Positions 16,262-31,737 of a DNA stretch of 64,000 bases are shown piece by piece. Every line of letters starts with the position of its first letter. The stretch's first letter is position 1. Source of the DNA: an uncultured Eubacteriales bacterium (lineage in GTDB: Bacteria; Bacillota; Clostridia; Christensenellales; Aristaeellaceae); assembly GCA_902799045.1 (NCBI GenBank), contig CADBZH010000011.1:54434-118433 (forward strand), read 5' to 3'. Position numbers and translations under genes: made by a program. The notes below the pieces were generated by a model. That model was not told the origin of the DNA. It saw only the letters and a program-made list of their open reading frames with translations, and made no database searches.

Positions 16262-16453
16262 CTACAGACTTTCCCCCGCGTACGCCAGCACCGCCTGGGC
16301 GCTGGCCCTGGCTTCGGCGTCGGTAATCACGCGGTCAAAGCGCTGGTTGTCGCTGACGACGCGGCCCGTCGCCTCGTCGATTTCGCTGTAGGTGGCGCTC
16401 ATGCGCATCCCAACGGCATCGTTAAAAACGGTTACACTGGTGATGATCTTCAT
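16262..16453 (-). CDS. Small phage-type protein, 63 residues
   Basis: Sequence begins MKIITSVTVFNDAVGMRMSATYSEIDE. Small proteins of this type (a TVxNDxVGMRxSxTYSEID motif) are, to my knowledge, found at the ends of tail operons in Clostridia prophages; their role is unknown. Its start overlaps the tail-protein stop by four bases, so it belongs to the same operon. No terminator is visible between it and the LexA boxes. It has no membrane segment or signal. Confidence 0.7.
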   Translation of the reverse strand: MKIITSVTVFNDAVGMRMSATYSEIDEATGRVVSDNQRFDRVITDAEARASAQAVLAYAGESL

Positions 16454-19038
16454 GCGGATAATCTCCTTTCTTTCAGTTGGTTGAGATATTGAAGTGCCTG
16501 TTCCCCGTAGTTTGTCTCGTCGCGCTCGTATTCTCCCATGGGTGTATCAAGTCGCCGCTGGTCGAAGTCCGCCTGCTTGGCCTTCAGCTCCCAGCCGAAA
16601 GAAAGTCCCGGCGTCCCCTCGACCACAAAGCAGCTTCCCCTGCGCTCGGAAACCCAGCAGTCCCCGCCGCCATACTTCTGCAGGAACACCTGATACTGGC
16701 TCGTCGTAATGGTCTGCGCGAACACCGCATCGAGCCACACGTAGCACTTCCCGTCCTCGCCGATCACGCCCTCGCCCACGTCGCCGAACATCGGCGACGG
16801 GGTCTCGTAGCAGTAGAGCAGCCGGTCGGAATACTGCCCGGTCGATACGACGCGGCTCTTGGTGCCGCTGACCGTCAGGTTATTCCTGACGCTCACGTAG
16901 TGAAATGAGCTGCTTCCCAGCGCGGTAATTCCGTTGTACACATAGATATCGTCGCGAACGAACACCGTCTTATACGTGGTCGGCCCGACGGAGCGGATGT
17001 AGATCGGGTCATAGGCGTTCCCGTCCGCGTCGTAGCATCTGATGGTAAAGCCATGGGTGGTGCTGGTGGCCCCGACGAACAGCGTCGCGTAAAGCTCATT
17101 GTTCCTGTAAAGCCGAAGCCCCTGGCCGAAAACATATGTCTTATAGGTATCGCCGCCGAGGTTGGCATAGGTCTGGTTGTAATAGACGCCGTCTTTCCCG
17201 ACATAAGCGCCCGTTCCGCCGACGCCCAGCGAGCCGTATTTCAGTGAACCGGCGTCCAGAGTAAAGTCGCCGATGTTCCCCTTTCGCGTCACGAACTCGC
17301 TGTTCGCGCCGTCCAGGATCCAGTAGTTCTCGCCGCTGGCGTCGGTGATGACGCCCGCCGTCAGCAGATCGGCGCTCAGGACGCCCGTGTCGATGTACGT
17401 GGCGTTGATGTAGAGCCTGCCGTTCTTCAGATACAGCCCCTGGACCTGGCCGTTGTTCGTCAGCCGGTTGAAGATCTCCTGCTGGGTCAGCGCCGTGTCC
17501 AGCGCCGTGTCCAGCGCCGTGACCGCCAGGCCCGCGTCGTTGGCCGCGCTGTTGGCGCCGTTGATGGCCTTGGCGAGCACCGGCGTCGTGTAGGTCGTCG
17601 TGCCGTTGGTCCAGGTGATCTTCGAGCGCGTCCAGATGTACTTCCCGCTGGCCCACGCCGGCTGGCTGGTGCTCCAGGAGCCGCCGCTGCGCGTGGTGCT
17701 GCTGTTGGAAAGGTAGTATTGCTCGACGATCTCGCTGACGCCCACGCCCGTCGCGCCGGTCTCGCCCTGGGGGCCGGTCGCGCCGTCCGCGCCGTCCCGG
17801 CCGCTGATGCAGGTCGGCGAGCTGTAGCCCGTCCCGTCCGAGGTGACGGTCGCCGTGCGCTGCCAGATGTAATACCCCTCCCGCCAGGCCGGCGCGTCGG
17901 TTGTCCAGCCGGTCACGGGCGCCACCACCGCGCTCTGGTTCTGCGCGTATTCCACGTCGACGCCCAGGATCGCGTCCTCCTCGATGGTCCTCAGCTTCGC
18001 CCGCATGACGTCGATCGCCCGGTCGCGCCTGGACAGATACGGATACTCGTCGGCCATCTCCCCAGCCTCCGGAGAGGCGATGTCCCCCCGGAAGGCGAGG
18101 CCGCAGGTGGCCGTCTCGTCGTTCAGCAGGCCGCGGATCTCCCCGTTCGCCCCGCCGCGCACGTAGTCGCCCAGCTCCGCCGCCGGGTCGTAGATCGCGC
18201 CCTCCAGGGCATAGGCCTGGCAGGTCATGCCCAGCATCCAGTCTGCCAGGTCCAGCGCCACCGGCACAGACACCTCCGCGTCGATCACCAGCCCGGTTGC
18301 GTCGCCGGTGAGGTGCGTCTCGCCGTCCACAGTGCATCGGATGCCGGTGATCGTGCCGAGCGAGCCGGTGTCGATCCCCTTCACGACGCCCGCCACGTCC
18401 ACGGCGTCTTCGGTCGCGCCCGCCGCGTCGCTGGCCGAGGCGAGCCGCACCAGCCGCAGCCGGTTCGCCGGGGTGATGATCCAGTTCCCGCCGTTCGCCG
18501 CCGCGATCCTGCCCAGCAGGTCGTGCAGGGTGGTCCCCTCCTCCGGCTCCTCCACAAAATAGCCGTCGCCGGTGGCGATCCGGCTGCGCGGATCCATGGA
18601 CACGCCCAGCGCCGCCGCGAGCTCCGACGCCAGCTGCGCCATGCTCCGCGGCCAGGTCCCGCCGGGGACGTACTCCGCGTTCGCCTTCAGCATCGCGTCG
18701 TAGCACTCCAGCGTCACAAGGCCGGTCACCGCGTCCCGCGTCCGGTGGCTCACGTAGAAGGTGCCCGCGGGCAGCCATTCGGAGGCGCTTTCGCCGTCCG
18801 TCAGGCGCATCCTCACCGCCACCTCCGCGGCCCTCGGCACGCCCTCCGCGCTTCGCACGCTGAGCGTACAGTTGGCGCTGACGGCGTTGCCGATGCCGAG
18901 CCCGCCCTGCATCAGCGATCGCTTGATGACGGGGCTGGAGATGTCCGCGTGTTCGACGCCGCCTATGACGGCCACGGTTTCAAGCCTGGCACTGCCGGCC
19001 GCCCACAGCCGCTTCCACAATGCGCTCGTGGTTTGCAT
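16450..19038 (-). CDS. Phage tail tip/side-fibre protein with short collagen-like stretch
   Basis: 862 residues, encoded after the distal-tail gene. The N-terminal half resembles the minor tail proteins that follow the distal-tail protein in siphophages. Around residue 430 a collagen-like run GRDGADGATGPQGETGATG joins it to a distal part with two related W-rich blocks before and after the run (AWREGYYIWQRT and AWASGKYIWTRS), typical of phage receptor-binding and carbohydrate-contact segments. A short coiled stretch with a repeat, LDTALDTALT, follows. It probably binds the host surface or a bacteriocin-like target. The ribosome-binding site on the coding strand is GGGAGGAGAGCGGC. The frame is intact over 2.6 kb. 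Confidence 0.8.
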   Translation of the reverse strand: MQTTSALWKRLWAAGSARLETVAVIGGVEHADISSPVIKRSLMQGGLGIGNAVSANCTLSVRSAEGVPRAAEVAVRMRLTDGESASEWLPAGTFYVSHRTRDAVTGLVTLECYDAMLKANAEYVPGGTWPRSMAQLASELAAALGVSMDPRSRIATGDGYFVEEPEEGTTLHDLLGRIAAANGGNWIITPANRLRLVRLASASDAAGATEDAVDVAGVVKGIDTGSLGTITGIRCTVDGETHLTGDATGLVIDAEVSVPVALDLADWMLGMTCQAYALEGAIYDPAAELGDYVRGGANGEIRGLLNDETATCGLAFRGDIASPEAGEMADEYPYLSRRDRAIDVMRAKLRTIEEDAILGVDVEYAQNQSAVVAPVTGWTTDAPAWREGYYIWQRTATVTSDGTGYSSPTCISGRDGADGATGPQGETGATGVGVSEIVEQYYLSNSSTTRSGGSWSTSQPAWASGKYIWTRSKITWTNGTTTYTTPVLAKAINGANSAANDAGLAVTALDTALDTALTQQEIFNRLTNNGQVQGLYLKNGRLYINATYIDTGVLSADLLTAGVITDASGENYWILDGANSEFVTRKGNIGDFTLDAGSLKYGSLGVGGTGAYVGKDGVYYNQTYANLGGDTYKTYVFGQGLRLYRNNELYATLFVGATSTTHGFTIRCYDADGNAYDPIYIRSVGPTTYKTVFVRDDIYVYNGITALGSSSFHYVSVRNNLTVSGTKSRVVSTGQYSDRLLYCYETPSPMFGDVGEGVIGEDGKCYVWLDAVFAQTITTSQYQVFLQKYGGGDCWVSERRGSCFVVEGTPGLSFGWELKAKQADFDQRRLDTPMGEYERDETNYGEQALQYLNQLKERRLSA

Positions 19039-19056
19039 GCCGCTCTCCTCCCTCCC

Positions 19057-19431
19057 CTATCGTTCGATCATGCTGAAGGTCATGCCGTCGTAGACGGTCC
19101 TGCGGCTGTCCCGCTGGTAGCGCTGGACGCCGAAGGGCACGGAGGACGTGTAAAACGTCCGCCTCGCCTGCGCCCCGGTCGTCGGATCGAGCACGGTCGC
19201 CTCGTAAAATTCCCCCGCGATGTCGGCCAGCAGCTGCCGGTGGATCTCCTCCGACAGCCGCAGCAGCTTCACGTCCCACTTCTGCTTCACGCCGATCCGC
19301 GTGCGGAACATCTCGCCGGTCTGCACGTCGCGGCCGCTGCCGTCGGCATCCAGGTCGTTCCGCGAGGGCGTCAGCTCCTCCACATACGGCGCGTAGTCGT
19401 GCCCGTTGATGATCAATACTGGCGCTGCCAT
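19057..19431 (-). CDS. Probable distal tail protein
   Basis: A 124-residue protein placed between tape measure and tip protein, the position of the distal-tail (Dit) or baseplate hub component. It is all-beta in character, with LIINGHDYAPYVEEL near the start and FYEATVLDPTTGAQARRTFYTSSVP in the middle. The ATG at 19431 follows AAGGGGG at seven bases; a GTG at 19437 overlapping the tape-measure stop is a less likely start. The function is inferred from position more than from motif. Confidence 0.65.
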   Translation of the reverse strand: MAAPVLIINGHDYAPYVEELTPSRNDLDADGSGRDVQTGEMFRTRIGVKQKWDVKLLRLSEEIHRQLLADIAGEFYEATVLDPTTGAQARRTFYTSSVPFGVQRYQRDSRRTVYDGMTFSMIER

Positions 19432-19433
19432 GT

Positions 19434-22418
19434 TCACACCCCCTTCAGCGGACTCTGGCTGTACATCTGCGTCCGCCGGTTGATCTCGTTGATGATCTGC
19501 TGGGCCGTCAGCCCGCCGCCCGACGCGGCCGGCCGGTCGCCCCCGCGCTGGATCGCGGCGACGATCTGCCCCGCCACATTGACGATGGTCTGGATCAGGT
19601 CCTCGTTGTTCGCGTCCAGCGTGCCCTGCAAGTCCGCCGTGCCCTTGGCGATCTGCGCGGACACCTCATAGGGCATCACCCCGCCCGTCGCCATGGCCGG
19701 CACCGTGAAAGTGACCCCGCGCAGGGCGGCGGCCATGCCGCCCGTCACGGCGCTGTACATCGTCTGCGCCAGCTGGCTCCGGTTCAGGATCTCGGTCCGC
19801 CCGTTGACGTGGCCCACGATCTCCGGCCCGGCCTCCCCGGCGATGAACATCGTCCCGTGGGCGCGCCGCGTGCCCCGGGCGTACTTCACGGCGCTGTCCC
19901 ACCAGCTGGCCCGGCCGCCCCTTCCGATCATCCCGCCGGCCGCGAAGCTGTGCGCGATGCCGCCGGGCGAATACCAGCCGCCCTTCGCCTTGCCGCTGAG
20001 CTTGCCGCCGATGGCGTTTCCGATCACGTTCGCCAGGTTCCCCAGCACCCCGTTCACCGTCGCCGTGATGGTGATCTTGCCCTGGCTGTTGCCAGTGATG
20101 TATTCCAAGATGTTGTTCCAGCCGTTCTTCCGAAGCGCCGTGAACACGCTGACGCTGTCGCCGACGTAGTTCTCGATGTTGTTCCAGCCCCACTTCTTCA
20201 GCTGCGTCCACACCGACACCTCGTCGCCCACGTATTCCTCGATGCTGCTCCAGCCCCACTGCAGAAGCCGCGTCCACACCGACACCTCGTCACCCACGAA
20301 GCCGCTGATGCTGCTCCAGCCATTTCGCGTCAGGCTCGTCCGCACCGTCACCGCGTCCCCCGTGAAGCCCGCCAGCGTGTTCCATCCGTTCTTCACCAGG
20401 CTCACCAGCGCCGAAAGCGGCCGGCTGACGCCGACGAAATCGTCCAGCGAGCTCCAGCCCTGTCGGACCAGACCCAGCATCGCCGAAATCGGTCTGTCCG
20501 CGCCCACGAAGCTCATAAGGCTCGTCCAGCCGCTGCGCTGCAGGGCGGTCTGCACCGTCACCGAATCGCCGACGTACCCGCTCAACGTATTCCAGCCCTG
20601 TCTGGCCAGCGAGACCAGGGCCGTCACCCTGTCGCCCACGAAGCCCGCGATGTTGCTCCAGCCGTCCTTGCCCAGCGAGACCAGCACCCGCGTCGACGCG
20701 CCGATGAAGTCGGCAAGGCTGCTCCAGTTGCCCTTCCCAAGGTTCGTGTTCACCTTCACCGACGTGCCCACGAAGCTGTCGAGGCTCGTCCAGCCCTGCT
20801 TCACCAGCCGCACCGGCACGTCCGCCTCCGACCGGCTCAGCAGGCCGTCCAGTCCGCCGCCGCCCAGGCCCAGCAGGCTTCCAAGGCCGCCAAACTTGCC
20901 CAGCGCCTCGCTCAACAGCGTCCACAGCTTCCTGGCGATGCCGTCCCAGTCCACCTGGTCCAGCGCCTTCCTGAGGCCCGAAGCGAATTCATCCGAATCG
21001 AAGCCCTTCAGGAAGCGAATGCCGAAGTCCAGCACACCCTTGATCGTCCGATCCAGCCATTGGCCCAGCGCGACCCAGTCCACCCGCTTCACCAGGCCGT
21101 TCACGGCGCTCGAAAGCGCGTCGCCCGCGCGCCCCCAGTCAAAGGCGCTCACGGCGGTGCGCATCGCGCCCAGGGCGTCGCTCAGCCGTCCGCCGACGAA
21201 GCCGCCCACCTCGGTCCAGTTCACGTCCGCGATGAATCGGTTCAGGCCCTGCGTCAGCGAAAGCGCCAGCGCCGACCAGTCGATCCCGTCCAGCGCCTCG
21301 CCCATCGTGCGCACCAGGCCCGACAGCCCTTCGGCCAGCTTGCCGCCGAAGCGCCCCCAGTCGAAGGTGATCGCCGCGTTGGCCAGCACCGCCAGCTTCG
21401 CGGTCAACAGCCGCGCCAGCGTCTCGCCCAACACGTCAAAGTCGATCTCCGCCAGCGCGCCGTTCAGCGCGTCGCCCAGCGCCCGTCCCAGCGACGGAAA
21501 GTCGATGCCGCCCAGAAGGCGGTCCGCCGTGCGCAGCAGCGTGTCGATGCCATCGCCCAGCGCGCCGCCCAGGCCCGTCCAGTTCACGCCGTCCACCAGG
21601 CCGTTGAACGCGGCGCAAACGCCGTCGACGACGCGCGTCACGTCCTCGCCCACGTTTTCCCAGCGGATCCACGCCCGCGCCCGTTCGATCGCGCCGTTCA
21701 GCGCGTCCGCGAGGGTCCTTCCCAGGCCGTCATAGTCGCCCGCCTCAAAGAGCGCCTTCAGCTCGCGGGCAAACCGCAGGATGCCCTCGTCCACCGGCAG
21801 CAGCGCCAGCTGTCCCGACAGGTCCGTCGCCGCGGCGCTCAGTCCGCCGCCGCCGGAGCCTTGCCCGCTGTCGCGCAGGATATCCAGCTCGTCGAAGCTC
21901 GCCAGCTGCCGCTTCAGCGCCTTCGCCGCGCGCGTCGACCCGCGCAGCCCCTCGGCGTATTCCCGCTGCTCGCCGGCGGCGCGCAAAAAGGCGTCCTGCC
22001 CCGTCAGCGCCGCCATGAACGATCCCACGGCGCTCACTGCCCACGTCAGCAGGTCCGTCAGCGTCGTCAGCGCCGGAGCCGCCGCCGTCAGGATCGGCAC
22101 GAAGGCGTCCCGAAGGCTTCGCTTCAGCGCTCCCAGCGACGCGCTCAATCCGTTCAATCGGGTCCGGGCGCTCTCCCAGGCCCTGGCCGTATCCCCGAAC
22201 GCCAGAAGCTGCTCGTCCCGAAGCCCTTCCACCGCCCGAACGGCCTTGCTCACGGCGCTGACGTATCCCGCCGCCGTCGCGCGCAGCTGGCCGCCCATGC
22301 GCCTCGTCGCGCTGTTCAGCGAGCGCGCCGCGTCCGCGATCCGCTTCGCGTCGTCCAGCCAGTCGCCGCCTCCAAACGGCGCGTCGATCACGATCGCGCC
22401 GCCCGAATGCCTCGCCAT
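19434..22418 (-). CDS. Phage tail tape-measure protein with two repeat arrays
   Basis: 994 residues. This protein sets tail length and is ejected with DNA. The N-terminal 200 residues are helical (TRLNGLSASLGALKRSLRDAF). Then come about eleven units of some 38-40 residues with an aromatic-plus-Gly pattern (VNWTGLGGALGDGI, IDFPSLGRALGDAL and so on; about 20900-21760). About eleven units of 21-24 residues with the core GW(S/T/N)xLxxFVG follow (about 20095-20830), then a hydrophobic Gly-rich C-terminal part. By the usual 1.5 angstrom per residue rule the tail would be near 150 nm. ATG 22418 follows AAGGAGGGG. The frame is intact. Confidence 0.88.
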   Translation of the reverse strand: MARHSGGAIVIDAPFGGGDWLDDAKRIADAARSLNSATRRMGGQLRATAAGYVSAVSKAVRAVEGLRDEQLLAFGDTARAWESARTRLNGLSASLGALKRSLRDAFVPILTAAAPALTTLTDLLTWAVSAVGSFMAALTGQDAFLRAAGEQREYAEGLRGSTRAAKALKRQLASFDELDILRDSGQGSGGGGLSAAATDLSGQLALLPVDEGILRFARELKALFEAGDYDGLGRTLADALNGAIERARAWIRWENVGEDVTRVVDGVCAAFNGLVDGVNWTGLGGALGDGIDTLLRTADRLLGGIDFPSLGRALGDALNGALAEIDFDVLGETLARLLTAKLAVLANAAITFDWGRFGGKLAEGLSGLVRTMGEALDGIDWSALALSLTQGLNRFIADVNWTEVGGFVGGRLSDALGAMRTAVSAFDWGRAGDALSSAVNGLVKRVDWVALGQWLDRTIKGVLDFGIRFLKGFDSDEFASGLRKALDQVDWDGIARKLWTLLSEALGKFGGLGSLLGLGGGGLDGLLSRSEADVPVRLVKQGWTSLDSFVGTSVKVNTNLGKGNWSSLADFIGASTRVLVSLGKDGWSNIAGFVGDRVTALVSLARQGWNTLSGYVGDSVTVQTALQRSGWTSLMSFVGADRPISAMLGLVRQGWSSLDDFVGVSRPLSALVSLVKNGWNTLAGFTGDAVTVRTSLTRNGWSSISGFVGDEVSVWTRLLQWGWSSIEEYVGDEVSVWTQLKKWGWNNIENYVGDSVSVFTALRKNGWNNILEYITGNSQGKITITATVNGVLGNLANVIGNAIGGKLSGKAKGGWYSPGGIAHSFAAGGMIGRGGRASWWDSAVKYARGTRRAHGTMFIAGEAGPEIVGHVNGRTEILNRSQLAQTMYSAVTGGMAAALRGVTFTVPAMATGGVMPYEVSAQIAKGTADLQGTLDANNEDLIQTIVNVAGQIVAAIQRGGDRPAASGGGLTAQQIINEINRRTQMYSQSPLKGV

Positions 22419-22471
22419 CAAACCCCTCCTTCCATCAAACCTTCTCTCCGCGCTTCCGCCTCATCCCGCCC

Positions 22472-22563: not shown

Positions 22564-23121
22564 TCATCCCCCCAGCGCTGCCTCCAGCCGCCGCTTCTCC
22601 GCCAGCTCCGCCTCGCTCAGCCTGGGCCGCAGCCTGCAAATGCCCGCGTTGCGCCGCCAGAACTCCTGCTCCCACTTCTCAAGCTTTTCGCCCCGGGCCT
22701 TCTTCTGCCGCAGCGCCAGCACCGTAGCGTACACCGAATCCCGGATCTCCATGAACAGCCCAAGGAACGTCCACCAGTGCAAAAACGCCACGTCGCGCAC
22801 CTCGTAGCCGGCCACGCGGTTCACCGCCGGAAACAGCAGCGGCGCGTCCTGCTCCCAATCCATCGTCCGCGCGCCGCCCCTCTCCTCCGTCGCGCCGTGG
22901 TCGATGAACGCCACCGCCGCGCGAAAGGCCTCCGGGTAGTCCGCCTGCGGCATCGCGGGAAAGTCCTCGTACAGGTTATTCAGGCAGATGTACGCCTTCT
23001 CGGCCTCGGTCAGCTCCGGGTCCTCAAAGGCCGCCAGGATGTTCAGCACCTCGCGGTAATCCGCGCGGATCGCCCATTCCCGCTCCCCGACCGCCAGCGC
23101 CCGGGGCAAGGCAAAGCGCAT
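22564..23121 (-). CDS. Phage Gp15-like protein
   Basis: 185 residues, resembling the bacteriophage Gp15 family, which is encoded just before the tape measure in many Firmicutes siphophages. Its second half carries the AFLHWWTFLGLFMEI segment and a basic, helical tail (LRQKKARGEKLEKWEQEFWRRN) found in this family. By position it is the second tail-assembly chaperone. The start codon overlaps the stop of the previous tail gene by one base (23121), suggesting coupled translation. The exact function in assembly is not established. Confidence 0.78.
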   Translation of the reverse strand: MRFALPRALAVGEREWAIRADYREVLNILAAFEDPELTEAEKAYICLNNLYEDFPAMPQADYPEAFRAAVAFIDHGATEERGGARTMDWEQDAPLLFPAVNRVAGYEVRDVAFLHWWTFLGLFMEIRDSVYATVLALRQKKARGEKLEKWEQEFWRRNAGICRLRPRLSEAELAEKRRLEAALGG

Positions 23122-23576
23122 TACTTCCCGCGCTCCGTCAGGTACTTGGCCGCGCGGTCGGAAAAGCGCGCCGTCTCCGCGTCAAACTGCCCGGAGATGT
23201 ACTGCCCCACGGCCTTCAGCACCGCCTCGCAGTAGAACGCGCCGCCCACTGGGCTGAACGGGTGCATGTTCCCGAAGAACGCGCCCGCCGCGTCGCCGCC
23301 AAACAGCCCGTTCACGGCCTCGTACAGCCGCTTCTCGGCCTCGCGCAGCGCCTGCACCTGCTTCTCGTCGCTCTCGTCGCCCGAGAAATCCTCCAGCGGC
23401 TTCGTGATCTCGTCGAACCGGCCCACCATGTCGTTGTAGCGAGCGATGATGCCGATGTCCGTCGGATGGAAATAGAACACGCCGATCTCCTCGCCGTGGA
23501 TGTTGTGGATCGGGACCCGGCGGCTGCCGTCGTCCACGGTGATCGCCGCCATCCCCTTCTTCATCTTCTCAGCCAT
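23121..23576 (-). CDS. Probable tail assembly chaperone
   Basis: 151 residues starting MAEKMKKGMAAITVDDGSRRVPIHN, after AAAGGAGGACAAT. Position between the tail-tube gene and the Gp15-like gene is that of the first tail-assembly chaperone (G or GpG-like) of siphophages, which coats the tape measure before tube polymerisation. The C-terminal half is helical with EAEKRLYEAVNGLFGGDAA. No slippery frameshift site joining it to the next gene was noticed; the one-base overlap may replace it. Confidence 0.65.
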   Translation of the reverse strand: MAEKMKKGMAAITVDDGSRRVPIHNIHGEEIGVFYFHPTDIGIIARYNDMVGRFDEITKPLEDFSGDESDEKQVQALREAEKRLYEAVNGLFGGDAAGAFFGNMHPFSPVGGAFYCEAVLKAVGQYISGQFDAETARFSDRAAKYLTERGK

Positions 23577-23622
23577 ATTGTCCTCCTTTCGCATTCCGCC
23601 TCTCCTGCGCCAAAGCCCACAT

Positions 23623-24258: not shown

Positions 24259-24271
24259 ATTCAAATCCTCC

Positions 24272-24740: not shown

Positions 24741-25154
24741 CTACGCGCCCGTCAGCTTCCAGTGCTTTCCGCGGGGCGCCCTTCGGTTGTCGGTCACGCC
24801 CATCACGGTGAAGCACTCGGCGCTCGCGACCCTCAGCCGCGCGGGGGTCCAGTCCTCGCCCTCAAAGGCGCCGTGGGCCGCCAGGTCGCCGCCCTGGATC
24901 GTGAAGCGTCCCTCGCCGTCCGACTGCCGCCAGGCGATCGGGTCGGCGTAAGCCTTGCCGCCGAAGTCCGCGTCCACGGGAATGCGCACCACGTATTCGT
25001 CCGCCACCGCCAGGCCGCCCCTCGCGTCCAGGCCGACGCGCTGGCCGCCGTGCCAGCTGCAACCGACGATCACCGTCGGCACGTACACGTGCCCGCCCGT
25101 GTCGCCGTCGCGCCGCGCGTTGAACAGCGTGATCGTCTCTTCGCAGCCTTTCAT
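24741..25154 (-). CDS. Phage head-tail joining protein, uncharacterised
   Basis: 137 residues. It contains the block VIVGCSWHGGQRVGLDARGG followed by YVVRIPVDADFGG and ends PRGKHWKLTGA, a pattern I associate with a conserved protein of unknown function in clostridial phage structural operons. The ATG at 25154 overlaps the preceding stop as ATGA; a much longer upstream frame is spurious. By order it is a head-closure or connector component. Confidence 0.6.
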   Translation of the reverse strand: MKGCEETITLFNARRDGDTGGHVYVPTVIVGCSWHGGQRVGLDARGGLAVADEYVVRIPVDADFGGKAYADPIAWRQSDGEGRFTIQGGDLAAHGAFEGEDWTPARLRVASAECFTVMGVTDNRRAPRGKHWKLTGA

Positions 25155-25540
25155 CCAACGACGCCTCCCGCGTAAATCAGCGGCACGCCCTCGTCGTCCG
25201 TCAAGCCCGCCAGCAGCGTCCCGATCTCCCGGTCCAGCGCCCTCTGGGCGGCCAGGACGCGCTCGCCCGCGCCCTGATAGCTCTCGGAATAACCGTCCGT
25301 CGCGAAGGAGGCCTGGGCCGATGCTGCCGCCAGCGCCTCCGCGCCGCAGCTGTCCATCACCCCGACGGCGCACATCATCGCGTCCTTCACGGCCTCCGGC
25401 AGCGTTTCCATGCCCCGAAGCCTGCCGTAGGTCAACGCGTCCACGCGGCCCCGCGCCCTCGGCTCCGCCGCCGCGAACGCCGCCTCGTCCAGCGTGCCAC
25501 CCCGCCCGACGTACTCCTCATAGCTCAGATACTCCGTCAT
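25151..25540 (-). CDS. Phage head-tail connector, Gp6-like
   Basis: 129 residues, mostly helical, beginning MTEYLSYEEYVGRGGTLDEAAF and continuing RGRVDALTYGRLRGMETLPEAVK. The YLxYxEYxxxGGTLxExxF opening is typical of the connector protein that follows the capsid gene in Clostridia phages. It would form the ring below the portal. The downstream gene overlaps by four bases. Confidence 0.72.
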   Translation of the reverse strand: MTEYLSYEEYVGRGGTLDEAAFAAAEPRARGRVDALTYGRLRGMETLPEAVKDAMMCAVGVMDSCGAEALAAASAQASFATDGYSESYQGAGERVLAAQRALDREIGTLLAGLTDDEGVPLIYAGGVVG

Positions 25541-25608: not shown

Positions 25609-25618
25609 CTTCCCCGCC

Positions 25619-26512
25619 TCAGCTCGCCGCGACGTTCACGATGATCCCGCCCGCGCGGTTGTTCAGCTTGAACGCGCCGTAGTAATAGCGCTCGTAGTAC
25701 AGGTACTTGCCCTTGCTCTGGGCGGTGGGCTCCGACATCATCGCCACCTCGTACTTCACCGGCGCAGCCACCGCCTCCGGGTCCACGATGATCATGTTGA
25801 TCTGCACGGCGTTGCTCTTGGGGGTCCAGCCCTCGTCGAAATCGTAGGCCGACTTCATCAGCTCCGCCGGCACCTCGCGGATCGTCACGCCGTCCAGGCA
25901 GGCGATCCTGCGGTTCACGTTGCCGTCGCTGGTCCCCAGGTCCACATAGCGCGTCAGGCCGGCGGCCTGCTTCAGCACGCGATACACGGCCGGCGTCATG
26001 TAGGCGCACAGGCGGTCGCGGTTGGCGCGGGCGTTCGCCATGGCCTCCAGGTAGCTGTCCCACTTGTTCAGAATGGTCGAGCTGGTCAGCGACGTGGTGT
26101 CCGGCGTGCAGAAGCTGTAGAGCTTGGAGGCCAGGTAGGCGTCCATCTCCGGCACCTTCTGCTGCTCGGTGAAGGCCTTGGTCACGTTGGCGATGGTCGC
26201 CACCATGTCGGTCTCGTCCATGTCCATCGGGTCCACCAGCGTGTCCCACTCGCGGTCCATCTCCAGGCTCACGGCCTGCAGGCTGTTGTTCCAGTTGCGG
26301 TTGAAGGTGCCCGTCACCTGGTCGCGGTCGGTCGCCCTCGCGCCGCTGGTGGTCAGGCTGGGAATGTACATCGTGCTGCCCATGCCGGGCTTGTACAGGT
26401 TGGCGTTGTTCGCGCCCCAGATCTCCCCGAAGTAGGAGATGTAGGGGTAAGCGTCCGCCATGGCGCGGCTGTAGTCCGCCGCATAGTTCACGTTCTGCTG
26501 GGTGAATGCCAT
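25619..26512 (-). CDS. Phage major capsid protein
   Basis: 297 residues with the expected length and order (scaffold, capsid, connector). Starts MAFTQQNVNYAADYSRAMAD after AGAGAGGAAGATTGT. Middle segments YLEAMANARANRDRLCAYMTPAVYRVLKQ and C-terminal VAMMSEPTAQSKGKYLYYERYYYGAF are HK97-fold-like features of siphovirus coat proteins. It should build the icosahedral head around the scaffold. The frame is intact. Confidence 0.85.
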   Translation of the reverse strand: MAFTQQNVNYAADYSRAMADAYPYISYFGEIWGANNANLYKPGMGSTMYIPSLTTSGARATDRDQVTGTFNRNWNNSLQAVSLEMDREWDTLVDPMDMDETDMVATIANVTKAFTEQQKVPEMDAYLASKLYSFCTPDTTSLTSSTILNKWDSYLEAMANARANRDRLCAYMTPAVYRVLKQAAGLTRYVDLGTSDGNVNRRIACLDGVTIREVPAELMKSAYDFDEGWTPKSNAVQINMIIVDPEAVAAPVKYEVAMMSEPTAQSKGKYLYYERYYYGAFKLNNRAGGIIVNVAAS

Positions 26513-26611: not shown

Positions 26612-27148
26612 CTATCGCCTCTGTCCGAAGCCCCAGACCTGGCTGAACTGCTCCGCCGCGCCCATCGTGCCCCGGGGCATGCTGCCGCGCGGCGCGCCGC
26701 CGAATCGCGGCAGCCTCTGGGCGCGTCCCCCGCCGATGAAGAACTCCTCATACTTCTCCCGGATCGCCGCCATCTGTTCCTCCACGGGCCGCGCCTTGTC
26801 CCCCAGGTCCAGCAGCGCGTACACCTGCTCGCGGAACTTCGGCTTCACGTCCTCAAAGGCTTCCCCTCCGATGGCGCGCAGCATGTCCCGCTCCGCCGCC
26901 ACCTGCCGGTAGACCTCCTCGTCCACGCCCTTCGGCGCGGCCAGAAGCGCTTCCTCGATCCTGGAGCGCGCCTCCGCCTCGGTCAGAAGTCCCTCCGTCG
27001 CCTCATCCACGCGACGGCGGGCTTCCTCCTCGCTCACCGTGCCCTCCACCGCCGCCCGGAGCGCCGCCTCGTGGGCCTCCAGCACGGTCTCCGCCTGATC
27101 CTCCGGCACCCCGTGCCCGATCAGGAAATCCCGGTCAAACTCCGCCAT
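26612..27148 (-). CDS. Phage scaffolding protein
   Basis: 178 residues, highly charged and helical over residues 1-130 (a long E/A/R-rich coiled segment with AALRAAVEGTVSEEEARRRVDEATEG-like periodicity), then a Gly/Arg-rich tail (GGAPRGSMPRGTMG). This is the usual profile of the internal scaffold removed after head assembly. The ATG at 27148 follows GGAGG at seven bases; a second ATG at 27154 is too close to it. No protease gene is visible nearby. Confidence 0.75.
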   Translation of the reverse strand: MAEFDRDFLIGHGVPEDQAETVLEAHEAALRAAVEGTVSEEEARRRVDEATEGLLTEAEARSRIEEALLAAPKGVDEEVYRQVAAERDMLRAIGGEAFEDVKPKFREQVYALLDLGDKARPVEEQMAAIREKYEEFFIGGGRAQRLPRFGGAPRGSMPRGTMGAAEQFSQVWGFGQRR

Positions 27149-27162
27149 GTCCATTCCTCCTC

Positions 27163-28755
27163 TCACTTTCCCAATTCTTCCGCCTTCAGCCGTTCGATCT
27201 CGGCCTCCGCCTCCTTCGGCGTCAGCCCCCGCCCATACTTCGCGTCGGTCAAAAACCGATACCGGCTCAAAAGCCCCGCCTCCACCAGCTTCACGCCCTC
27301 GGCGATGCTGGTCTGGCGATCCTGGGTCACGCCGTCGTCGAAGATCGCCTGCACGCTGTATCCGCCGGCGGCCAGGCGCTCCACCGGCTCGCCCTTCCAG
27401 CGCAGCCCGTAGAGGATCGCCACGTCGATGATGTTCCGCGCCAGGTGCTCCAGCGCCGGCGCCAGCTGGTTCTGCACGGACTTCACGGTCTTGAACGTCT
27501 TGCTGTTCTCGCTCACCACCTCGGTGGCAGTCCTCAGGCCGTTGTGGGCGTCGAAGCTGAACGTCCCCGCCGAGAATCCCAGCTGCAGGCACAGGATCGA
27601 CAGGAAGGCGTTCAGCGCCGCCACATGCTCCTCCACCCGCAGCTCCACGCTGTTGTCCTGGATGCGCAATTCGCCCGCGTCGTCGGTCGCCAGCGCCTCG
27701 TACACCCGGTCCGCCGGATCGAAGTAGCGCCGCATCTCGCCGGTGGAGGGATCGGCCACCGTCCGCACGCACCGCGCCGGCACGATGATCCGCTTCTTCC
27801 CCAGCTCAAACTCCTGCACGAAGCTGTCGTAGCAGATGTCCAGCGCCCGCAGCGTCTCCAGCGCGTTTCCGTAGAGGCTCACGCCCAGCGGGCTGTCGTC
27901 GTCCAGGTTGTTGGCGATGGGCGTGTGCCAGTAGGTGAACAGGCTGTCCGACACCCGCGCTTCCGTGTGGGCGCTCACCATCGGGTACGCCTCCTCCAGC
28001 GGATACCGCACCCCCAGGATGTCCTGCCCCGGCGCCCCGTGCCGCCCGTCCGAGCGATACGCCTCGTTGTCCACGCAGTAGGTCTCGCCGTCGCGCCGGT
28101 GCCACTCCAGCCGCGTGAAGTAATATCCGTCTCTGGCCTCCCGGGAGATGAACACGGCCTCCCTCACGCGGGCATTGTCCCACGCCGTCGGCACGAACTG
28201 ATCCGCCATGCAGTATCCGATCCGCACCCTTCCGGCGTCCTCCCCAAAGGGCTCTCCCGCAGGAATTGTCTCCTTCGCCTCCCCCGGCTCGCACCACACC
28301 TTCAACGCCGCGCCGCCCAGGGCCAGCCCCTGCTCGATCAGCTGCTGCATCTTCCCGCTGAAGGCGTTCTCCCGCAGCACCGCGTGCACAAACGCGTTCA
28401 GCGGATCGTCCTTGCCCGCCGCGCCACCGTTCATGCTCACGCGAATGTCGCACTGCTCGCTCCACACCAGCCCCGCCAGCTCCGCCGACACCGCCTTGGC
28501 CGCGTTCAGCCGGTACATCTGCCGCACCGCCTTCGGATTGGCGATCGTCGGCGCGGGCACCATGTGCCAGGGCGCGTAGCTTCCCCGATACAGCGCCTTC
28601 CAGACGAAGATCCCCTTGTCGTAAAACTGCCGGTAGGCCGGCACGCCGTCCACCTCGAAGATGTCCCTGAACGGCCGGGCCAGGCCCGTCTCCGCGCCCG
28701 CCTTCTGCATAAGGCTCCGCCCCCTCTTCCTCAAAGTTTCAAATATCTTCATCAT
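27163..28755 (-). CDS. Phage portal protein
   Basis: About 530 residues. It forms the dodecameric DNA channel at one head vertex and starts packaging with terminase. Features match SPP1-type portals: an aromatic N-terminus with RQFYDKGIFVWKALYRGSY, a beta-rich wing, the long helix region FVQEFELGKKRIIVPARCVRT, and SFDAHNGLRTATEVVSENSKTF near residue 440. Two adjacent ATGs (28755 and 28752) follow GAAGGG; the first is given. A longer frame upstream only reads through a dispersed repeat. The gene lies between terminase and scaffold as expected. Confidence 0.88.
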   Translation of the reverse strand: MMKIFETLRKRGRSLMQKAGAETGLARPFRDIFEVDGVPAYRQFYDKGIFVWKALYRGSYAPWHMVPAPTIANPKAVRQMYRLNAAKAVSAELAGLVWSEQCDIRVSMNGGAAGKDDPLNAFVHAVLRENAFSGKMQQLIEQGLALGGAALKVWCEPGEAKETIPAGEPFGEDAGRVRIGYCMADQFVPTAWDNARVREAVFISREARDGYYFTRLEWHRRDGETYCVDNEAYRSDGRHGAPGQDILGVRYPLEEAYPMVSAHTEARVSDSLFTYWHTPIANNLDDDSPLGVSLYGNALETLRALDICYDSFVQEFELGKKRIIVPARCVRTVADPSTGEMRRYFDPADRVYEALATDDAGELRIQDNSVELRVEEHVAALNAFLSILCLQLGFSAGTFSFDAHNGLRTATEVVSENSKTFKTVKSVQNQLAPALEHLARNIIDVAILYGLRWKGEPVERLAAGGYSVQAIFDDGVTQDRQTSIAEGVKLVEAGLLSRYRFLTDAKYGRGLTPKEAEAEIERLKAEELGK

Positions 28756-28880: not shown

Positions 28881-28886
28881 TCTCCT

Positions 28887-30209
28887 TCACAACAAATACG
28901 CGATCTCCCGTTCCAGCGCGTATTCCATCGCGTCCAGGCTGTCGATATTCGTCGTGCCGTCATCCAGGCGCACGTCCTGCGTGGGCTTGCTCCGATCCCA
29001 CACCGCGTTCAGGAGCGCGTCCACGGTGTTCCGGCACTCCGCCCGCACGAAAAAACGCCCTTCCCCCATCAGCAGGCACACCGCCCGGATGCGGTCGTTG
29101 ATTGGCTTCTTCCGCGCCGACCCGACGTTCACCGGCAGCCGCGCCGCGGCTGCCGCCGCCCGCAGCCCGTTGATCAGCGTCTGCTCGGCGCTGTCGCACC
29201 AGGCGTCCGTCACCAGCCACCGCGCCTGACACCTCCGCACGAATTCCACGAAGTCCGCCGCCAGGGCGTTCGGGTTCAGCGCCTCCTGCTGCCGGTACTC
29301 ATCCAGCACCACCACGGCCCCGCCGCCGGTAAACCCCAGGCAGCAGAAGGCGTGGGCGCTCCTCCCGCCGCCGAAGTCCACGCCGATCACCGCGCTGCGG
29401 ATCCCGCCCGGGGGCATCGGATGCTCCGCCGACCCGTCCACGATGAACCGCTCCGGCGCGTCGGCGAATTGCCGGTAGATCAGCCCCTCGGCCGCCGCCC
29501 GTTCGCCCAGGATGTCCCGCCGGTACCACACCGAGCCCACGTCATACCGGCTCTCGATCTCCTTGAGCCGCTCCGGCGTGATGGTCGCGTTGTCCCGAAT
29601 CGTGAAATGCTCATACAGGAATCCGCCCGCAAGGCCATCCCTGCGATACTTGTCGATGTAATCCCGATAGATCGGCGCGCCCGGCCCACAGGGATTCAAA
29701 TCCCACAGCGTCATCGGCCTCCGCGCCGCGATCTGCCGTCCCGCCGCCACCTTCACAAAGCTGGTGCGGCTGTCCGGGCCGTCAAAGTGCTCGTTGATCT
29801 CCGTGGCGATCCACAGCCCGTAGCTGTTGCCCAGGATGCGCTTGTAGCTGTCCGAGCGCCCGCCGCCCGCGAACACCACGATCTTCTCTCCCGTCCGGGT
29901 CTGCACGAACAGCGCCTCGTTGTCGCGATACTTGCCCCATCGGCATCGCCCGCGAAACAGATTCTCCAGTCCAAAGCCGTTGCACACCCCGATGTTCAGC
30001 TTCGCGTTGGCGATGGTCGCGCCGCTGGCCAGGTGAAACCGGTCCGGCGCGGTCTCCAGGTAAGCCGCCGCGATGATGCAGTGGTCGATGGTCTTGCCGC
30101 TGCGGATCGCCCCCTCCGCCACGCACATCCGCTGCCTCAACGCCCTTCGGATGTAACGCCTGTGCTTCTCGGAGAACGCCCCCCACGGAATCGTCGCCGT
30201 CCTGCTCAT
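28887..30209 (-). CDS. Phage terminase large subunit
   Basis: 440 residues; the packaging motor and headful or cos nuclease. The ATPase part has a P-loop-like segment VAEGAIRSGKTIDH near residue 33 and WDLNPCGPGAPIY near 175. The nuclease part has SAVIGVDFGGGRSAHAF with the first catalytic Asp, LVTDAWCDSAEQTLI and a C-terminal Asp near SLDAMEYALE. The ATG at 30209 follows GGGAGA. It sits between the small-subunit candidate and the portal gene. Motifs are consistent with an active enzyme. Confidence 0.9.
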   Translation of the reverse strand: MSRTATIPWGAFSEKHRRYIRRALRQRMCVAEGAIRSGKTIDHCIIAAAYLETAPDRFHLASGATIANAKLNIGVCNGFGLENLFRGRCRWGKYRDNEALFVQTRTGEKIVVFAGGGRSDSYKRILGNSYGLWIATEINEHFDGPDSRTSFVKVAAGRQIAARRPMTLWDLNPCGPGAPIYRDYIDKYRRDGLAGGFLYEHFTIRDNATITPERLKEIESRYDVGSVWYRRDILGERAAAEGLIYRQFADAPERFIVDGSAEHPMPPGGIRSAVIGVDFGGGRSAHAFCCLGFTGGGAVVVLDEYRQQEALNPNALAADFVEFVRRCQARWLVTDAWCDSAEQTLINGLRAAAAAARLPVNVGSARKKPINDRIRAVCLLMGEGRFFVRAECRNTVDALLNAVWDRSKPTQDVRLDDGTTNIDSLDAMEYALEREIAYLL

Positions 30210-30265
30210 ACTGTCTCCCTTGTCCCTTCCCTCGGTCTTTGCAGGAGCGCCCCTCCGTCTCCCTG

Positions 30266-30314: not shown

Positions 30315-30315
30315 A

Positions 30316-30372: not shown

Positions 30373-30389
30373 ATCCCCCCGCCCCTCGC

Positions 30390-30659
30390 TCACTCCCTGA
30401 ATATCTCCTCCAGCGGCAACCAATCCTCCGTATCCCCGCCGCTCTCCTCGGCCATATCCCCGGCCAGATCCCGATACGCGGCGGTCAGATCCCGCAGCTT
30501 GAACAGCGTGGTCGCGCCGTCGTCCTGCGCCTTCACCTCGGTCACCGCCCCGTCCGGAATCGCGTCCGCCACCCTTTCCAGCCGCATCAGCAGCTTTTTG
30601 CGCAGCCGGGCGGCAATGCGGGCGTTGCCCTTCAATCCGCCGCCCCGCGCCCGCTTCAC
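30390..30659 (-). CDS. Possible terminase small subunit, short
   Basis: About 89 residues; a basic helical protein with ARLRKKLLMRLERVADAIP and LFKLRDLTAAYRDLAGDM. The order (upstream of the large terminase) and the TxxKLRDLTAAYxDLAGD segment suggest a small terminase subunit, but the usual N-terminal helix-turn-helix is absent. The GTG at 30659 is chosen because it lies just after the stop of the overlapping regulator gene. A TTG or an upstream GTG (30692) are alternatives. It could equally be a packaging accessory protein. Confidence 0.55.
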   Translation of the reverse strand: MKRARGGGLKGNARIAARLRKKLLMRLERVADAIPDGAVTEVKAQDDGATTLFKLRDLTAAYRDLAGDMAEESGGDTEDWLPLEEIFRE

Positions 30660-30663
30660 GCTC

Positions 30664-31047
30664 TCACCGATACTCCTCCGCCCCCTTCTCACAAGCCGCC
30701 GTCCGCGCGGAGCGCAGCGCCTGCCGGTGCAGCCGGCACGCCCAATCCTCCGAGCATCCCATCTCCCTGGCGATGCGCTGCATGCTCCAGCCGTTCAGAT
30801 ACCGGTATCGCAGCACCTCCCGATACCGCTCCTCCTCCACCGCGTCGATCGCGCCTTCCACCCGGCGCACCTTCTCGGCCAGCCTGGCCACCCGCGCCTC
30901 GATCTCCGCCGCCAGCGCCCGCATCCGCGCGCGCCCTTCCTCGCCGCAGCTCAGCCCCAGCTCCAGGTACCGCCGCTGCCGTTCGCGCAGCGCCACGATC
31001 TGCCGCTCCAGGCGCACCGCCTGGCCAAGAAATGCCGTCCCCGCCAC
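30664..31047 (-). CDS. Phage ArpU/sigma-like late transcription regulator
   Basis: 127 residues. The N-terminal 75 residues are a charged coiled region. The C-terminal part holds a sigma-70 region 4-like helix-turn-helix, LRYRYLNGWSMQRIAREMGCSEDWACRLHRQALR, as in ArpU, RinA and DUF1492-type regulators that turn on late (packaging and structural) genes in Firmicutes phages. The start is a GTG at 31047 after AAAGGG at seven bases. It is the first gene of the leftward operon and faces the divergent repressor, fitting a late activator. Confidence 0.78.
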   Translation of the reverse strand: MAGTAFLGQAVRLERQIVALRERQRRYLELGLSCGEEGRARMRALAAEIEARVARLAEKVRRVEGAIDAVEEERYREVLRYRYLNGWSMQRIAREMGCSEDWACRLHRQALRSARTAACEKGAEEYR

Positions 31048-31086
31048 GCAATCGCCCTTTCTTCACTGATTCCTGTTCAATTTGTC

Positions 31087-31100
31087 CAATAGTCTGAACA
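31087..31100 (-). promoter_or_regulatory. Probable repressor operator, copy 1
   Basis: CAATAGTCTGAACA is an exact inverted copy of 31152-31165. It lies upstream of the leftward phage operon, with a possible minus-strand -10 TATAGT at 31106-31111. Confidence 0.7.
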
Positions 31101-31142
31101 CCAATACTATAGGGCGCTCTCCCGCCGATCTTGCCTTTCTCC

Positions 31143-31171
31143 TTGACAAATTGTTCAGACTATTGTACAAT
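31143..31171 (+). promoter_or_regulatory. Promoter of the XRE repressor with operator copy 2 in its spacer
   Basis: TTGACA (31143-31148) and TACAAT (31166-31171) are 17 bases apart. The operator TGTTCAGACTATTG (31152-31165) fills the spacer up to the -10, so bound repressor would block RNA polymerase: a self-limiting arrangement as in phage repressors. Confidence 0.82.
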
Positions 31172-31203
31172 CTGGTCAAAGAACAGTCTCAGGAGGTCCT
31201 CTC

Positions 31204-31737
31204 ATGTTGATTCCCAACCTCTCCGCGCGGCTGGCCGAGCGCCGCCTCACCCTCTCCAGAGTTTCCGCCGACACCGGCATCTCCCGCACCACCCTCACCG
31301 CCCTCACGAACGGCAGCGCAAAGGGCGTCCAGTTTGATACGCTGAACGCCCTCTGCCAATACCTGAACGCCACTCCCGACGATCTTTTCCTCTATCGTCC
31401 CTTCGATCTCACCGCCTTCGCCGCCGGCGATCCCGGCCCCTCCCGGGTCGAATTCACGCTCCGCCGCGCCGGACGGCGGGACGAGCGCCACGCCCTGAAC
31501 TGCGAGGTGCAATACCTCCCTTCGTCCGGCGCGCCTGTCCTGGACGCCCTCCGCGTCCGCCTCACCGTGCCCCCGGACGATCCCGACGCCCCCGCCTTCG
31601 TCCGGCTCCTTCGCGCGCTTCCCGCCCCGGCCCTGGCCGATCTCGAGCTTCAGATCCTCCGCGCCTTCGACGCGAAGGTCGACCCCTCCCTCGCCCCCGA
31701 CGACTACACCCCGGACCTGCTCTGGCCCTGGCAATGA
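31204..31737 (+). CDS. XRE-family (Cro/CI-type) transcriptional regulator
   Basis: 177 residues. The N-terminal helix-turn-helix (about 5-60) is LAERRLTLSRVSADTGISRTTLTAL, of the Cro/CI class with short YozG-like domain. The rest is a beta-rich region without a visible RecA-type cleavage site. AGGAGGT precedes the ATG at good spacing. It is divergent from the phage-like operon. A 14-base operator occurs in its own promoter and, inverted, before the phage operon, so it probably represses both. Lack of an Ala-Gly cleavage motif means induction by RecA-stimulated self-cleavage is not evident. Confidence 0.82.
   Translation: MLIPNLSARLAERRLTLSRVSADTGISRTTLTALTNGSAKGVQFDTLNALCQYLNATPDDLFLYRPFDLTAFAAGDPGPSRVEFTLRRAGRRDERHALNCEVQYLPSSGAPVLDALRVRLTVPPDDPDAPAFVRLLRALPAPALADLELQILRAFDAKVDPSLAPDDYTPDLLWPWQ

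What the first reader, a model, noticed from the sequence alone, without database searches (positions are those of the whole stretch)
16262..31737. Complete phage head-tail cassette without integrase, replication or lysis genes: possible domesticated particle or gene-transfer-agent-like element
Seen: intact frames for late regulator, terminase, portal, scaffold, capsid, connectors, tail tube, chaperones, 994-residue tape measure, distal tail, tip protein and a divergent XRE repressor. I found no integrase, excisionase, replication, holin or endolysin gene in 15.4 kb. On the repressor side lies an AAA+ gene and then cell-wall genes; on the other side recA. Structural genes are all open over 14 kb while everything needed for an independent life cycle is gone. 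Known: gene transfer agents and phage tail-like particles are kept in this state. Inference: the host may use the particle. A simple defective prophage is the main alternative.
Basis: partly seen in the sequence, partly recalled or inferred. Interest (0 to 1): 0.8.

Follow-up and report, generated by a model that had tools for sequence, protein, structure and literature searches.

The report
Tamed phage particle beside recA
A gut bacterium, probably from the rumen, and its sister species have kept at one fixed spot next to recA the genes for a phage head and tail that no longer look able to spread on their own, and whose DNA loader has lost its DNA-recognising part, which suggests that they now build particles that package the bacterium's own DNA.

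Summary
The cassette is real and intact: late regulator, both terminases, portal, scaffold, capsid, connectors, tail tube, chaperones, tape measure, tip, and a divergent repressor. In 5 species both flanks, recA and AAA, lie on its contig; a sixth deleted it, leaving its end as a scar. dS, trees and flanks mostly agree on vertical descent; no stops were seen against about 50 expected under neutral decay in one pair. It is not a decaying prophage. Three features suggest a gene transfer agent. (1) The small terminase lacks its N-terminal DNA-binding domain in 6 of 8 elements tested; 19 of 22 phage relatives have it, 3 are cut by contig ends. (2) No integrase, though a prophage with a related repressor has one beside it. 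(3) Lysis genes are unlinked: all six clade members with an assembled guaA locus carry a holin-endolysin pair there, while two more distant elements at recA hold lysis genes inside. That the pair serves the cassette is inferred. Particles and random packaging are untested. The layout matches RcGTA and the 2026 Faecalibacterium agent, with a siphovirus-type tail.

The parts
16262..16453 (-). small gene g63 (63 aa, phrog_18444, unknown), last gene of the cassette; survives in the deletion scar of G019
16450..19038 (-). tail tip / receptor-binding protein, 862 aa, fast evolving
   Evidence: phrog_6616 tail protein E 3e-59; dN/dS 0.33-0.58 in six pairs; receptor role inferred
19057..19437 (-). distal tail-like protein, 126 aa
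   Evidence: phrog_1194, no function named there; role inferred from position
19434..22421 (-). tape measure protein, about 995 aa
   Evidence: phrog_1535 E 5e-30
22564..23121 (-). tail assembly chaperone, Gp15 type
   Evidence: PF06854 E 7e-18, phrog_706; role inferred
23121..23594 (-). tail assembly chaperone-like, 157 aa
   Evidence: phrog_11299, no function named there; role inferred from position
23746..24300 (-). tail tube protein
   Evidence: phrog_3099 E 2e-44, no function named there; role inferred from position; dN/dS 0.06-0.42
24272..24724 (-). tail completion / connector
   Evidence: phrog_3266 E 2e-17
24741..25154 (-). connector-like gene (DUF6751)
   Evidence: PF20536, phrog_3366; start as chosen; role inferred
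25151..25540 (-). head-tail adaptor
   Evidence: phrog_541 E 7e-13
25619..26512 (-). major capsid protein, 297 aa
   Evidence: phrog_422 E 6e-82
26612..27154 (-). scaffold protein, 180 aa
   Evidence: no family hit (tested in a longer frame); homologues next to the capsid gene in 12 other fetched elements; role inferred
27163..28755 (-). portal protein
   Evidence: phrog_533 E 1e-110; PF05133; TIGR01542 above cut-off
28887..30209 (-). large terminase, ATPase and nuclease motifs intact
   Evidence: phrog_2 E 2e-26; motif check (motif roles recalled)
30390..30692 (-). small terminase lacking the N-terminal helix-turn-helix; longest frame from 30692, likelier start GTG at 30659
   Evidence: homology to phage TerS; HTH profile absent, C-terminal profile 70 bits; longer homologues match phrog_1206 terminase small subunit, this one alone matches no family
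30664..31047 (-). late regulator, sigma-70 region 4-like
   Evidence: PF04545, phrog_36
31082..31101 (-). operator copy on the late-gene side
31151..31170 (+). operator copy overlapping the XRE promoter-like site (TTGACA-17-TACAAT, 31143-31171)
31204..31737 (+). XRE repressor, HTH_26; only HTH families matched, no peptidase domain

Best explanation
This is a domesticated, vertically inherited, siphovirus-type phage element that most likely works as a gene transfer agent. Shown: a complete head-tail-packaging set fixed at recA, kept under purifying selection, without integrase or replication genes, behind an XRE gene with a conserved operator-like repeat. Shown: its small terminase lacks the DNA-binding domain that its phage relatives carry, and a conserved holin-endolysin pair sits at guaA in the same species. 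Inferred: when the repressor releases the operator, the sigma-like regulator and the late operon are made; TerL with the truncated TerS loads chromosomal DNA without seeking its own pac site; particles leave through lysis by the guaA-locus pair and deliver host DNA to kin.
For: Both flanks on one contig in G000, G014, G002, G025, G022; one flank in G011 and G017 because the contig ends. 104 of 106 gene copies in seven species open; the 2 exceptions are a mis-chosen start and a contig end. Neutral simulation (substitutions only) averages 50, 15 and 74 stops in three pairs; 0 seen. Concatenated dN/dS 0.24-0.50; dS like flanking host genes, e.g. G000-G014 0.44 against AAA 0.56 and LCP 0.50. G000+G014 pair in 3 of 4 cassette trees and in the AAA+LCP tree. 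G019: AAA, XpaC-like gene, tip fragment, g63, recA; the XpaC-like gene lies at the same place in G002, between AAA and xre. TerS HTH profile: found in G022 and G009, not in G000, G014, G017, G002, G025, G027; C-terminal profile in 8 of 8; HTH in 19 of 22 phage TerS (the training set; the other 3 cut by contig ends). Repressor sought in viral contigs: 4 loci, three of them proviruses of this cassette, the fourth a 37 kb prophage contig with the repressor beside an integrase. Holin-endolysin pair at guaA in 6 of 6 assembled clade-A loci.
Against: No particle, DNA or expression data; draft genomes, the named ones MAGs. G022 and G009, at the same locus, keep the TerS HTH. G009 has a different TerL and capsid and a distant portal (26%), and G027 a rearranged head module, so phage genes still flow in. 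rpoB groups G022 with G027 (99/98), the cassette groups it with clade A; rpoB puts G002 weakly with G000+G014, the cassette puts it with G017. lateReg and the tail-completion gene reach dN/dS 0.99 in one pair. The lysis pair rests on one evolutionary event; G019 keeps it (dN/dS 0.21 and 0.09 against G002) without the cassette. The operator is absent from the lysis locus. Endolysin-like genes are common: 28 of 28 genomes had some match, many weak. The cassette's capsid gene is in only 10 of 28 genomes, two of these not linked to recA.
Confidence: 0.66

Rival explanations
1. A PBSX-like killer particle: domesticated, packages host DNA, but is kept because it kills competing strains, not because it transfers genes.
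For: Same control logic as described for PBSX-like regions (XRE repressor, sigma-like late regulator; passages of PMC8347963); G009 at the same locus has an endolysin, XhlA-like and r1t-type holin genes after the tail genes. Tip protein evolves fast.
Against: TerL scores 66.5 bits on the PBSX-family model, below its 105.05 cut-off; no sheath or baseplate family was hit; tape measure, tube and tip fit a long flexible tail.
Confidence: 0.17
2. A defective prophage that is simply old and slowly decaying.
For: No integrase or replication genes; patchy presence; G019 has deleted it.
Against: No stop codons in 13 genes against about 50 expected for G000-G014; concatenated dN/dS below 1 in 6 of 6 pairs; same locus in several species.
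Confidence: 0.05
3. A phage satellite or helper-dependent prophage that uses another phage for integration, replication or lysis and still moves between species, entering next to recA each time.
For: Module differences in G009 and G027; 7 integrase-family matches elsewhere in the genome; tree conflicts outside and within clade A.
Against: No direct repeat of 12 bp or more between the junction stretches compared; dS follows the flanking host genes; deletion scar in G019; satellites usually borrow capsids instead of carrying a full set (recalled).
Confidence: 0.08
4. The guaA-locus holin-endolysin pair is unrelated to the cassette (another domesticated lysis or secretion module). This is a rival to one part of the model and can hold together with the best explanation.
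For: No XRE operator there; kept in G019 without cassette.
Against: It was found only in the clade whose visible cassettes lack lysis genes (G000, G014, G002, G011; the G017 cassette end is cut off, G019 has only the scar; G022 and G025 not testable); in G009, G008 and G018 DUF4236 lies next to guaA without the pair, and G009 has lysis genes inside its recA element.
Confidence: 0.4

Closest known systems
RcGTA (Rhodobacter capsulatus gene transfer agent)
   Same: 14 kb head-tail-packaging cluster with holin and endolysin encoded elsewhere (PMC6209664, passages seen); small terminase that appears to lack the N-terminal DNA-binding domain (PMC6854486, passages seen).
   Different: Different phylum; no sequence comparison with RcGTA was run here. 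Here an XRE gene with a conserved operator and a sigma-like late regulator are retained.
FpGTA of Faecalibacterium (PMC12946183, 2026; abstract, passages and section 9 seen)
   Same: Gut Clostridia; two loci, the second with holin and endolysin; possible TerS without obvious DNA-binding domain.
   Different: FpGTA is most likely podovirus-like, a 10.5 kb operon of ten ORFs; this one has a tape measure and tail tube, lies at recA, and its lysis locus holds no recognised tail genes. Sequence homology with FpGTA was not tested.
PBSX of Bacillus subtilis and PBSX-like particles (PMC8347963, passages seen)
   Same: XRE repressor, sigma-like activator, terminases followed by structural genes; PBSX packages random 13 kb host DNA.
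   Different: [quoted passage not shown] contractile tail (recalled); PBSX TerL model not met here.
Rumen and gut phages with a related head module (viral contigs such as L326 and L272)
   Same: Capsid 51-75% identical in the full-length matches outside this cassette; TerS C-terminal domain shared where TerS was found.
   Different: TerS HTH present in 19 of 22; no XRE, recA or AAA match in the fetched stretches (at most 10 kb each side) of 77 of 80 contigs, 7 of which have weak operator-like matches (3-4 mismatches).

Membership tests
Gene transfer agent | Tailed-phage structural and packaging cluster, intact | tested here: met
Gene transfer agent | No self-propagation genes (integrase, replication) at the locus | tested here: met
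   both junctions abut host genes in 5 species
Gene transfer agent | Vertical inheritance with the host under purifying selection | tested here: met
   for clade A; placements of G022/G027 and, weakly, G002 disagree with rpoB
Gene transfer agent | GTA-type small terminase without N-terminal DNA-binding domain | tested here: met
   for the window's element; not met in G022 and G009
Gene transfer agent | Lysis by holin and endolysin, in known cases often unlinked | tested here: inconclusive
   pair present at guaA; functional link not shown, no shared operator
Gene transfer agent | Particles contain random host DNA and deliver it to recipient cells | not testable with these tools
   needs particle sequencing and a transfer assay
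PBSX-type defective phage | PBSX-family large terminase | tested here: not met
   TIGR01547 66.5 bits against cut-off 105.05
[quoted passage not shown]
   absent in the window; an endolysin follows the tip gene in G009 and G027
PBSX-type defective phage | Kills sister strains | not testable with these tools
   no assay
Active temperate prophage | Integrase and attachment sites | tested here: not met
   none in cassette; no direct repeat of 12 bp or more between the junction stretches compared
Decaying prophage | Neutral accumulation of stops and frameshifts | tested here: not met

The most novel reading that the evidence does not exclude
An independently evolved gene transfer agent of siphovirus type in rumen Clostridia, with living intermediates: elements at the same recA locus that still have the phage-type TerS and built-in lysis genes (G009), one with HTH but no built-in lysis genes (G022), one with lysis genes but no HTH (G027), and the fully converted form (G000 and relatives). 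The steps by which a prophage becomes a gene transfer agent could then be read off one genus.
Probability: 0.55. Interest if true: 0.82.

Novelty: new variant of a known kind. Interest (0 to 1): 0.74.

Why it matters
Few gene transfer agents are known outside Alphaproteobacteria, and a 2026 study reported GTA-like packaging of random DNA in several families of gut Clostridia, Christensenellaceae among them, with an element described for Faecalibacterium (PMC12946183, passages and section 9 seen). A siphovirus-type candidate with named loci, a repressor gene, an operator and a truncated small terminase would give a testable source for such packaging in the rumen. The mix of TerS states and lysis-gene positions at one locus makes the order of domestication steps directly testable.

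Tried and rejected
Attachment-site repeats: none of 12 bp or more between 16051-16480 and 31691-31960, only one 11-mer, taken as chance. Lysis genes under the XRE operator: searched in 12 genomes with up to 3 mismatches; 8 of 12 have matches, and all lie at the cassette except one 3-mismatch hit in G014:C33, not followed up; the reversed-pattern control gave one hit in G009. Holin family PF04531: 0 of 28 genomes; the guaA holin is PF05105. SOS control: two LexA-like boxes lie between g63 and recA, none at the XRE promoter (box meaning recalled); the XRE matched only HTH families, so the trigger is unexplained. AAA+ as part of the element: rejected. RNA families in the window: none at gathering score. 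The first rpoB tree was wrong because antisense frames were picked; redone by homology. The G025 rpoB is an outlier, likely a contaminant; its rpoB numbers are ignored. The first scaffold query was in the wrong frame and was redone. In one search the G002 copy of chaperone A fell out of the pair G000-G002. The upstream gene 13186-14643, labelled 'recX?' in my scripts, is not recX (its C-terminus looks like a sugar transferase, by eye); it served only as a host flank. Literature: searches listed no paper that I recognised as describing this element in the held open library; I opened passages of seven papers, not the rest, and subscription papers are not covered.
Full report
What is in the window. 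On the minus strand from 31047 down to 16262 lies one tight run of late genes: sigma-like regulator, small terminase, large terminase, portal, scaffold, capsid, three connectors, tail tube, two tail chaperones, tape measure (995 codons), distal tail-like protein, tip protein (862 aa) and a 63-aa gene. A divergent XRE gene lies at 31204-31737. Family hits support the key identities; tube, distal tail protein, one chaperone and scaffold are named by position. TerL keeps its ATP-binding and nuclease motifs in all eight copies checked (motif roles recalled). No integrase, replication or lysis gene was recognised in the cassette. recA lies at one end; at the other lie an AAA+ gene and an LCP-family cell-wall gene, each found in 25 of 28 genomes of the genus. 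The AAA gene is on the recA contig in 7 of those 25.

Where it comes from. The RGIG5017 title says roe deer rumen; that RUG means rumen is recalled.

Same locus in other species. The genus is held as 28 genomes. The capsid gene is in 10 of them. In G000, G014, G002, G025 and G022 the cassette lies between recA and AAA on one contig with the same gene order; in G011 and G017 one flank is cut by the contig end. G027 has a rearranged version next to recA, without AAA beside it. G009 has a 26 kb version between AAA and recA, with a different TerL and capsid and a distant portal. G023 shows an endolysin end like that of G027 next to recA. G013 and G020 carry relatives that are not linked to recA. 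The G013 contig has primase- and helicase-like genes beside its terminase (read by eye), so it is probably a real phage or prophage. G026 and G018 show the tail or lysis end of a G009-like element on short contigs, place unknown. In the other genomes either no such element was seen near recA or the contig was too short to tell.

Not decay. In seven species 104 of 106 gene copies are open. The two exceptions are a start codon chosen too far upstream in G002 and a contig end in G017. Concatenated dN/dS is 0.31 (G017-G011), 0.35 (G000-G014), 0.43 (G000-G017), 0.43 (G000-G002), 0.24 (G000-G025) and 0.50 (G000-G022). By gene: terL 0.09-0.24, tail tube 0.06-0.42, tape measure 0.34-0.68, tip 0.33-0.58, late regulator 0.45-0.99, tail-completion gene 0.37-0.99 (Nei-Gojobori; dS is probably underestimated at this GC content). 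A simulation with the observed number of substitutions, without indels, gives on average 50, 15 and 74 stops for G000-G014, G017-G011 and G000-G022 (minima of 200 runs: 31, 3, 51); none is observed.

Not repeated entry. Synonymous divergence of the cassette is like that of the flanking AAA and LCP genes (G000-G014: 0.44, 0.56, 0.50; G000-G017: 0.46, 0.52, 0.55) and higher than in rpoB and recA (0.17 each for G000-G014). Trees, rooted on the outlying elements: G000+G014 pair in 3 of 4 cassette trees (not in the head tree, which leaves them unresolved) and in the AAA+LCP tree; G017+G011 pair in the tail and tape-measure trees, and the head tree puts them in one group with G002; AAA+LCP holds no G011. 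G019 has AAA, an XpaC-like gene, a fragment of the tip C-terminus, an intact 63-aa gene and recA. The XpaC-like gene lies in the same place in G002, between AAA and xre, so G019 lost the cassette by deletion. Against strict descent: rpoB places G022 with G027, G023 and G015 (99/98) while the cassette places it with clade A, and rpoB places G002 with G000+G014 (85/80, weak) while the cassette and AAA+LCP place it with G017. Some exchange or replacement is therefore likely, above all outside clade A.

Origin of the switch. Two copies of an operator-like repeat, TTGTTCAGACTATTGKACAA, lie between XRE and the late regulator. The late-gene copy is recognisable in all eight elements aligned by eye, the XRE-side copy is more variable. 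In the window 2 sites are found against 0 in 100 shuffles. Among 12 genomes searched with up to 3 mismatches, 8 have matches: both copies in G000, G014, G002 and G025, one in G017, G022, G027 and G009; G011, G019, G023 and G015 have none; one extra weak hit lies elsewhere in G014. The XRE family was sought in viral contigs by short peptide patterns, which can miss distant relatives: 4 loci, of which three are proviruses cut from this cassette and one (L395) is a 37 kb contig in which a related repressor (56% over residues 1-71), with similar operators at 3 and 4 mismatches, is followed directly by an integrase. So the switch most likely comes from an integrating temperate phage, with the integrase lost here.

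Small terminase. TerS homologues were found in 22 viral contigs outside this cassette. In 19 (two identical) the protein starts with a helix-turn-helix (DWNAIRAEYIGGGISQRKLAKKHG...); the other 3 are cut by contig ends. Three proviruses of this cassette (L251, L252, L256) were left out of the profile; L251 and L252 lack the domain and L256 has it, like the genomes they resemble. The profile, built from the 19, finds the domain in G022 (59.9 bits) and G009 (28.8) and nowhere in six frames of the fetched cassette regions of G000, G014, G017, G002, G025 and G027 (best noise 7.6 bits). A C-terminal profile finds all eight (50-76 bits). G011 could not be tested. In G000 the late regulator's stop codon (30664) lies between the possible terS starts at 30692 and 30659, so there is no room for the domain. 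The G022, G009 and L326 versions match phrog_1206, terminase small subunit; the G000 version alone matches no family. In RcGTA the apparent lack of this domain is proposed to abolish sequence specificity (PMC6854486, passages), and FpGTA's possible TerS is described as lacking an obvious DNA-binding domain.

Lysis genes. In G009 and G027 an ELLD endolysin follows the tip gene, in G009 with XhlA-like and r1t-type holin genes. In G000, G014, G002, G025, G011 and G022 only the 63-aa gene lies between tip and recA; in G017 this end is off the contig. An ELLD endolysin (PF25309) and a holin (PF05105) lie between DUF4236 and guaA in 6 of 6 clade-A genomes with that locus (G000, G014, G002, G017, G011, G019; families tested on the G000 and G017 copies). 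The other 18 guaA loci fetched show no pair; one of these (G026) has only about 260 bp of flank. In G009, G008 and G018 DUF4236 lies next to guaA without the pair. dN/dS over 15 pairs is 0.14-0.56 for the endolysin and 0.09-0.47 for the holin. G022, G025, G015 and G003 have no assembled guaA of this type. G022 has an endolysin-holin pair on another contig beside a repressor-like and a late-regulator-like gene. Endolysin-like genes as such are common: 28 of 28 genomes had some match to the G027 endolysin, many of them weak, and G014, G002 and G019 have further ELLD-type copies. That the guaA pair serves the cassette is inference: it is one evolutionary event, and G019 keeps the pair without the cassette.

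Free relatives. A pattern scan of viral contigs kept the best 80 of 84 with a related capsid. In the fetched stretches, at most 10 kb each side, 77 show no XRE, recA or AAA match; 7 of them have weak operator-like matches at 3-4 mismatches. The 3 others are proviruses of this very cassette. In the phage collection the best TerL is 63% identical, the best capsid 38% and the best tail tube about 60%.

Capsid length. The capsid protein is 294-298 aa in the eight recA-locus elements of this type and 394-413 aa in four relatives elsewhere (G020, G013, G073, L029); G009 has another capsid type. The meaning is open.

Reading. The element looks like a maintained, fixed, non-mobile particle factory. 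With a TerS that has lost its likely site-recognition domain, packaging of host DNA without preference is the likeliest outcome, as in gene transfer agents; a killer-particle role as in PBSX is the main rival. Layout and logic match RcGTA and FpGTA; no direct sequence comparison with either was made. The state of TerS and lysis genes varies at the same locus (G009: HTH and built-in lysis; G022: HTH, no built-in lysis; G027: no HTH, built-in lysis; clade A: neither), which looks like several stages or parallel routes of domestication.

Noticed in passing
L338:5050-8279 (G022 contig C47): A small lysis island: XRE repressor-like gene, divergent late-regulator-like gene, ELLD endolysin and holin, between apparent host genes.
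   Followed up: partly
L332:4310-9730 (G014 contig C50): A second partial element in G014: tip C-terminus and a second g63 copy, then endolysin, a methyltransferase-like ORF (by eye) and holin, followed by a very long surface-protein-like ORF.
   Followed up: partly
L170:9621-10760, L084:3121-4260, L085:7350-8425: recA is interrupted by internal deletions in G019 (about 119 bp) and G005 and a frame break in G001, at different sites; assembly error or real loss is undecided.
   Followed up: partly
window 16219-16254: Two LexA-like boxes between the cassette's last gene and recA; none at the cassette promoter.
   Followed up: partly
L072:1215-5539 (G013): A phage or prophage with primase- and helicase-like genes (by eye) shares TerL, portal and capsid at about 61-63% identity with the cassette.
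   Followed up: partly
L395:9574-11819: AT-rich prophage contig of 37 kb with a related XRE repressor and operators next to an integrase and a divergent small excisionase-like gene (by eye).
   Followed up: partly
window 35077-35883: The ORF overlapping the end of the LCP gene contains several copies of a repeated peptide (RHCEENPKGSTWQSGLFAPRN...), so a DNA repeat lies there.
   Followed up: no
G000:C19:88629-89768 (L331:16629-17768): An integrase gene lies about 1 kb beyond the 3' end of guaA, so a separate integrative element may use guaA.
   Followed up: no
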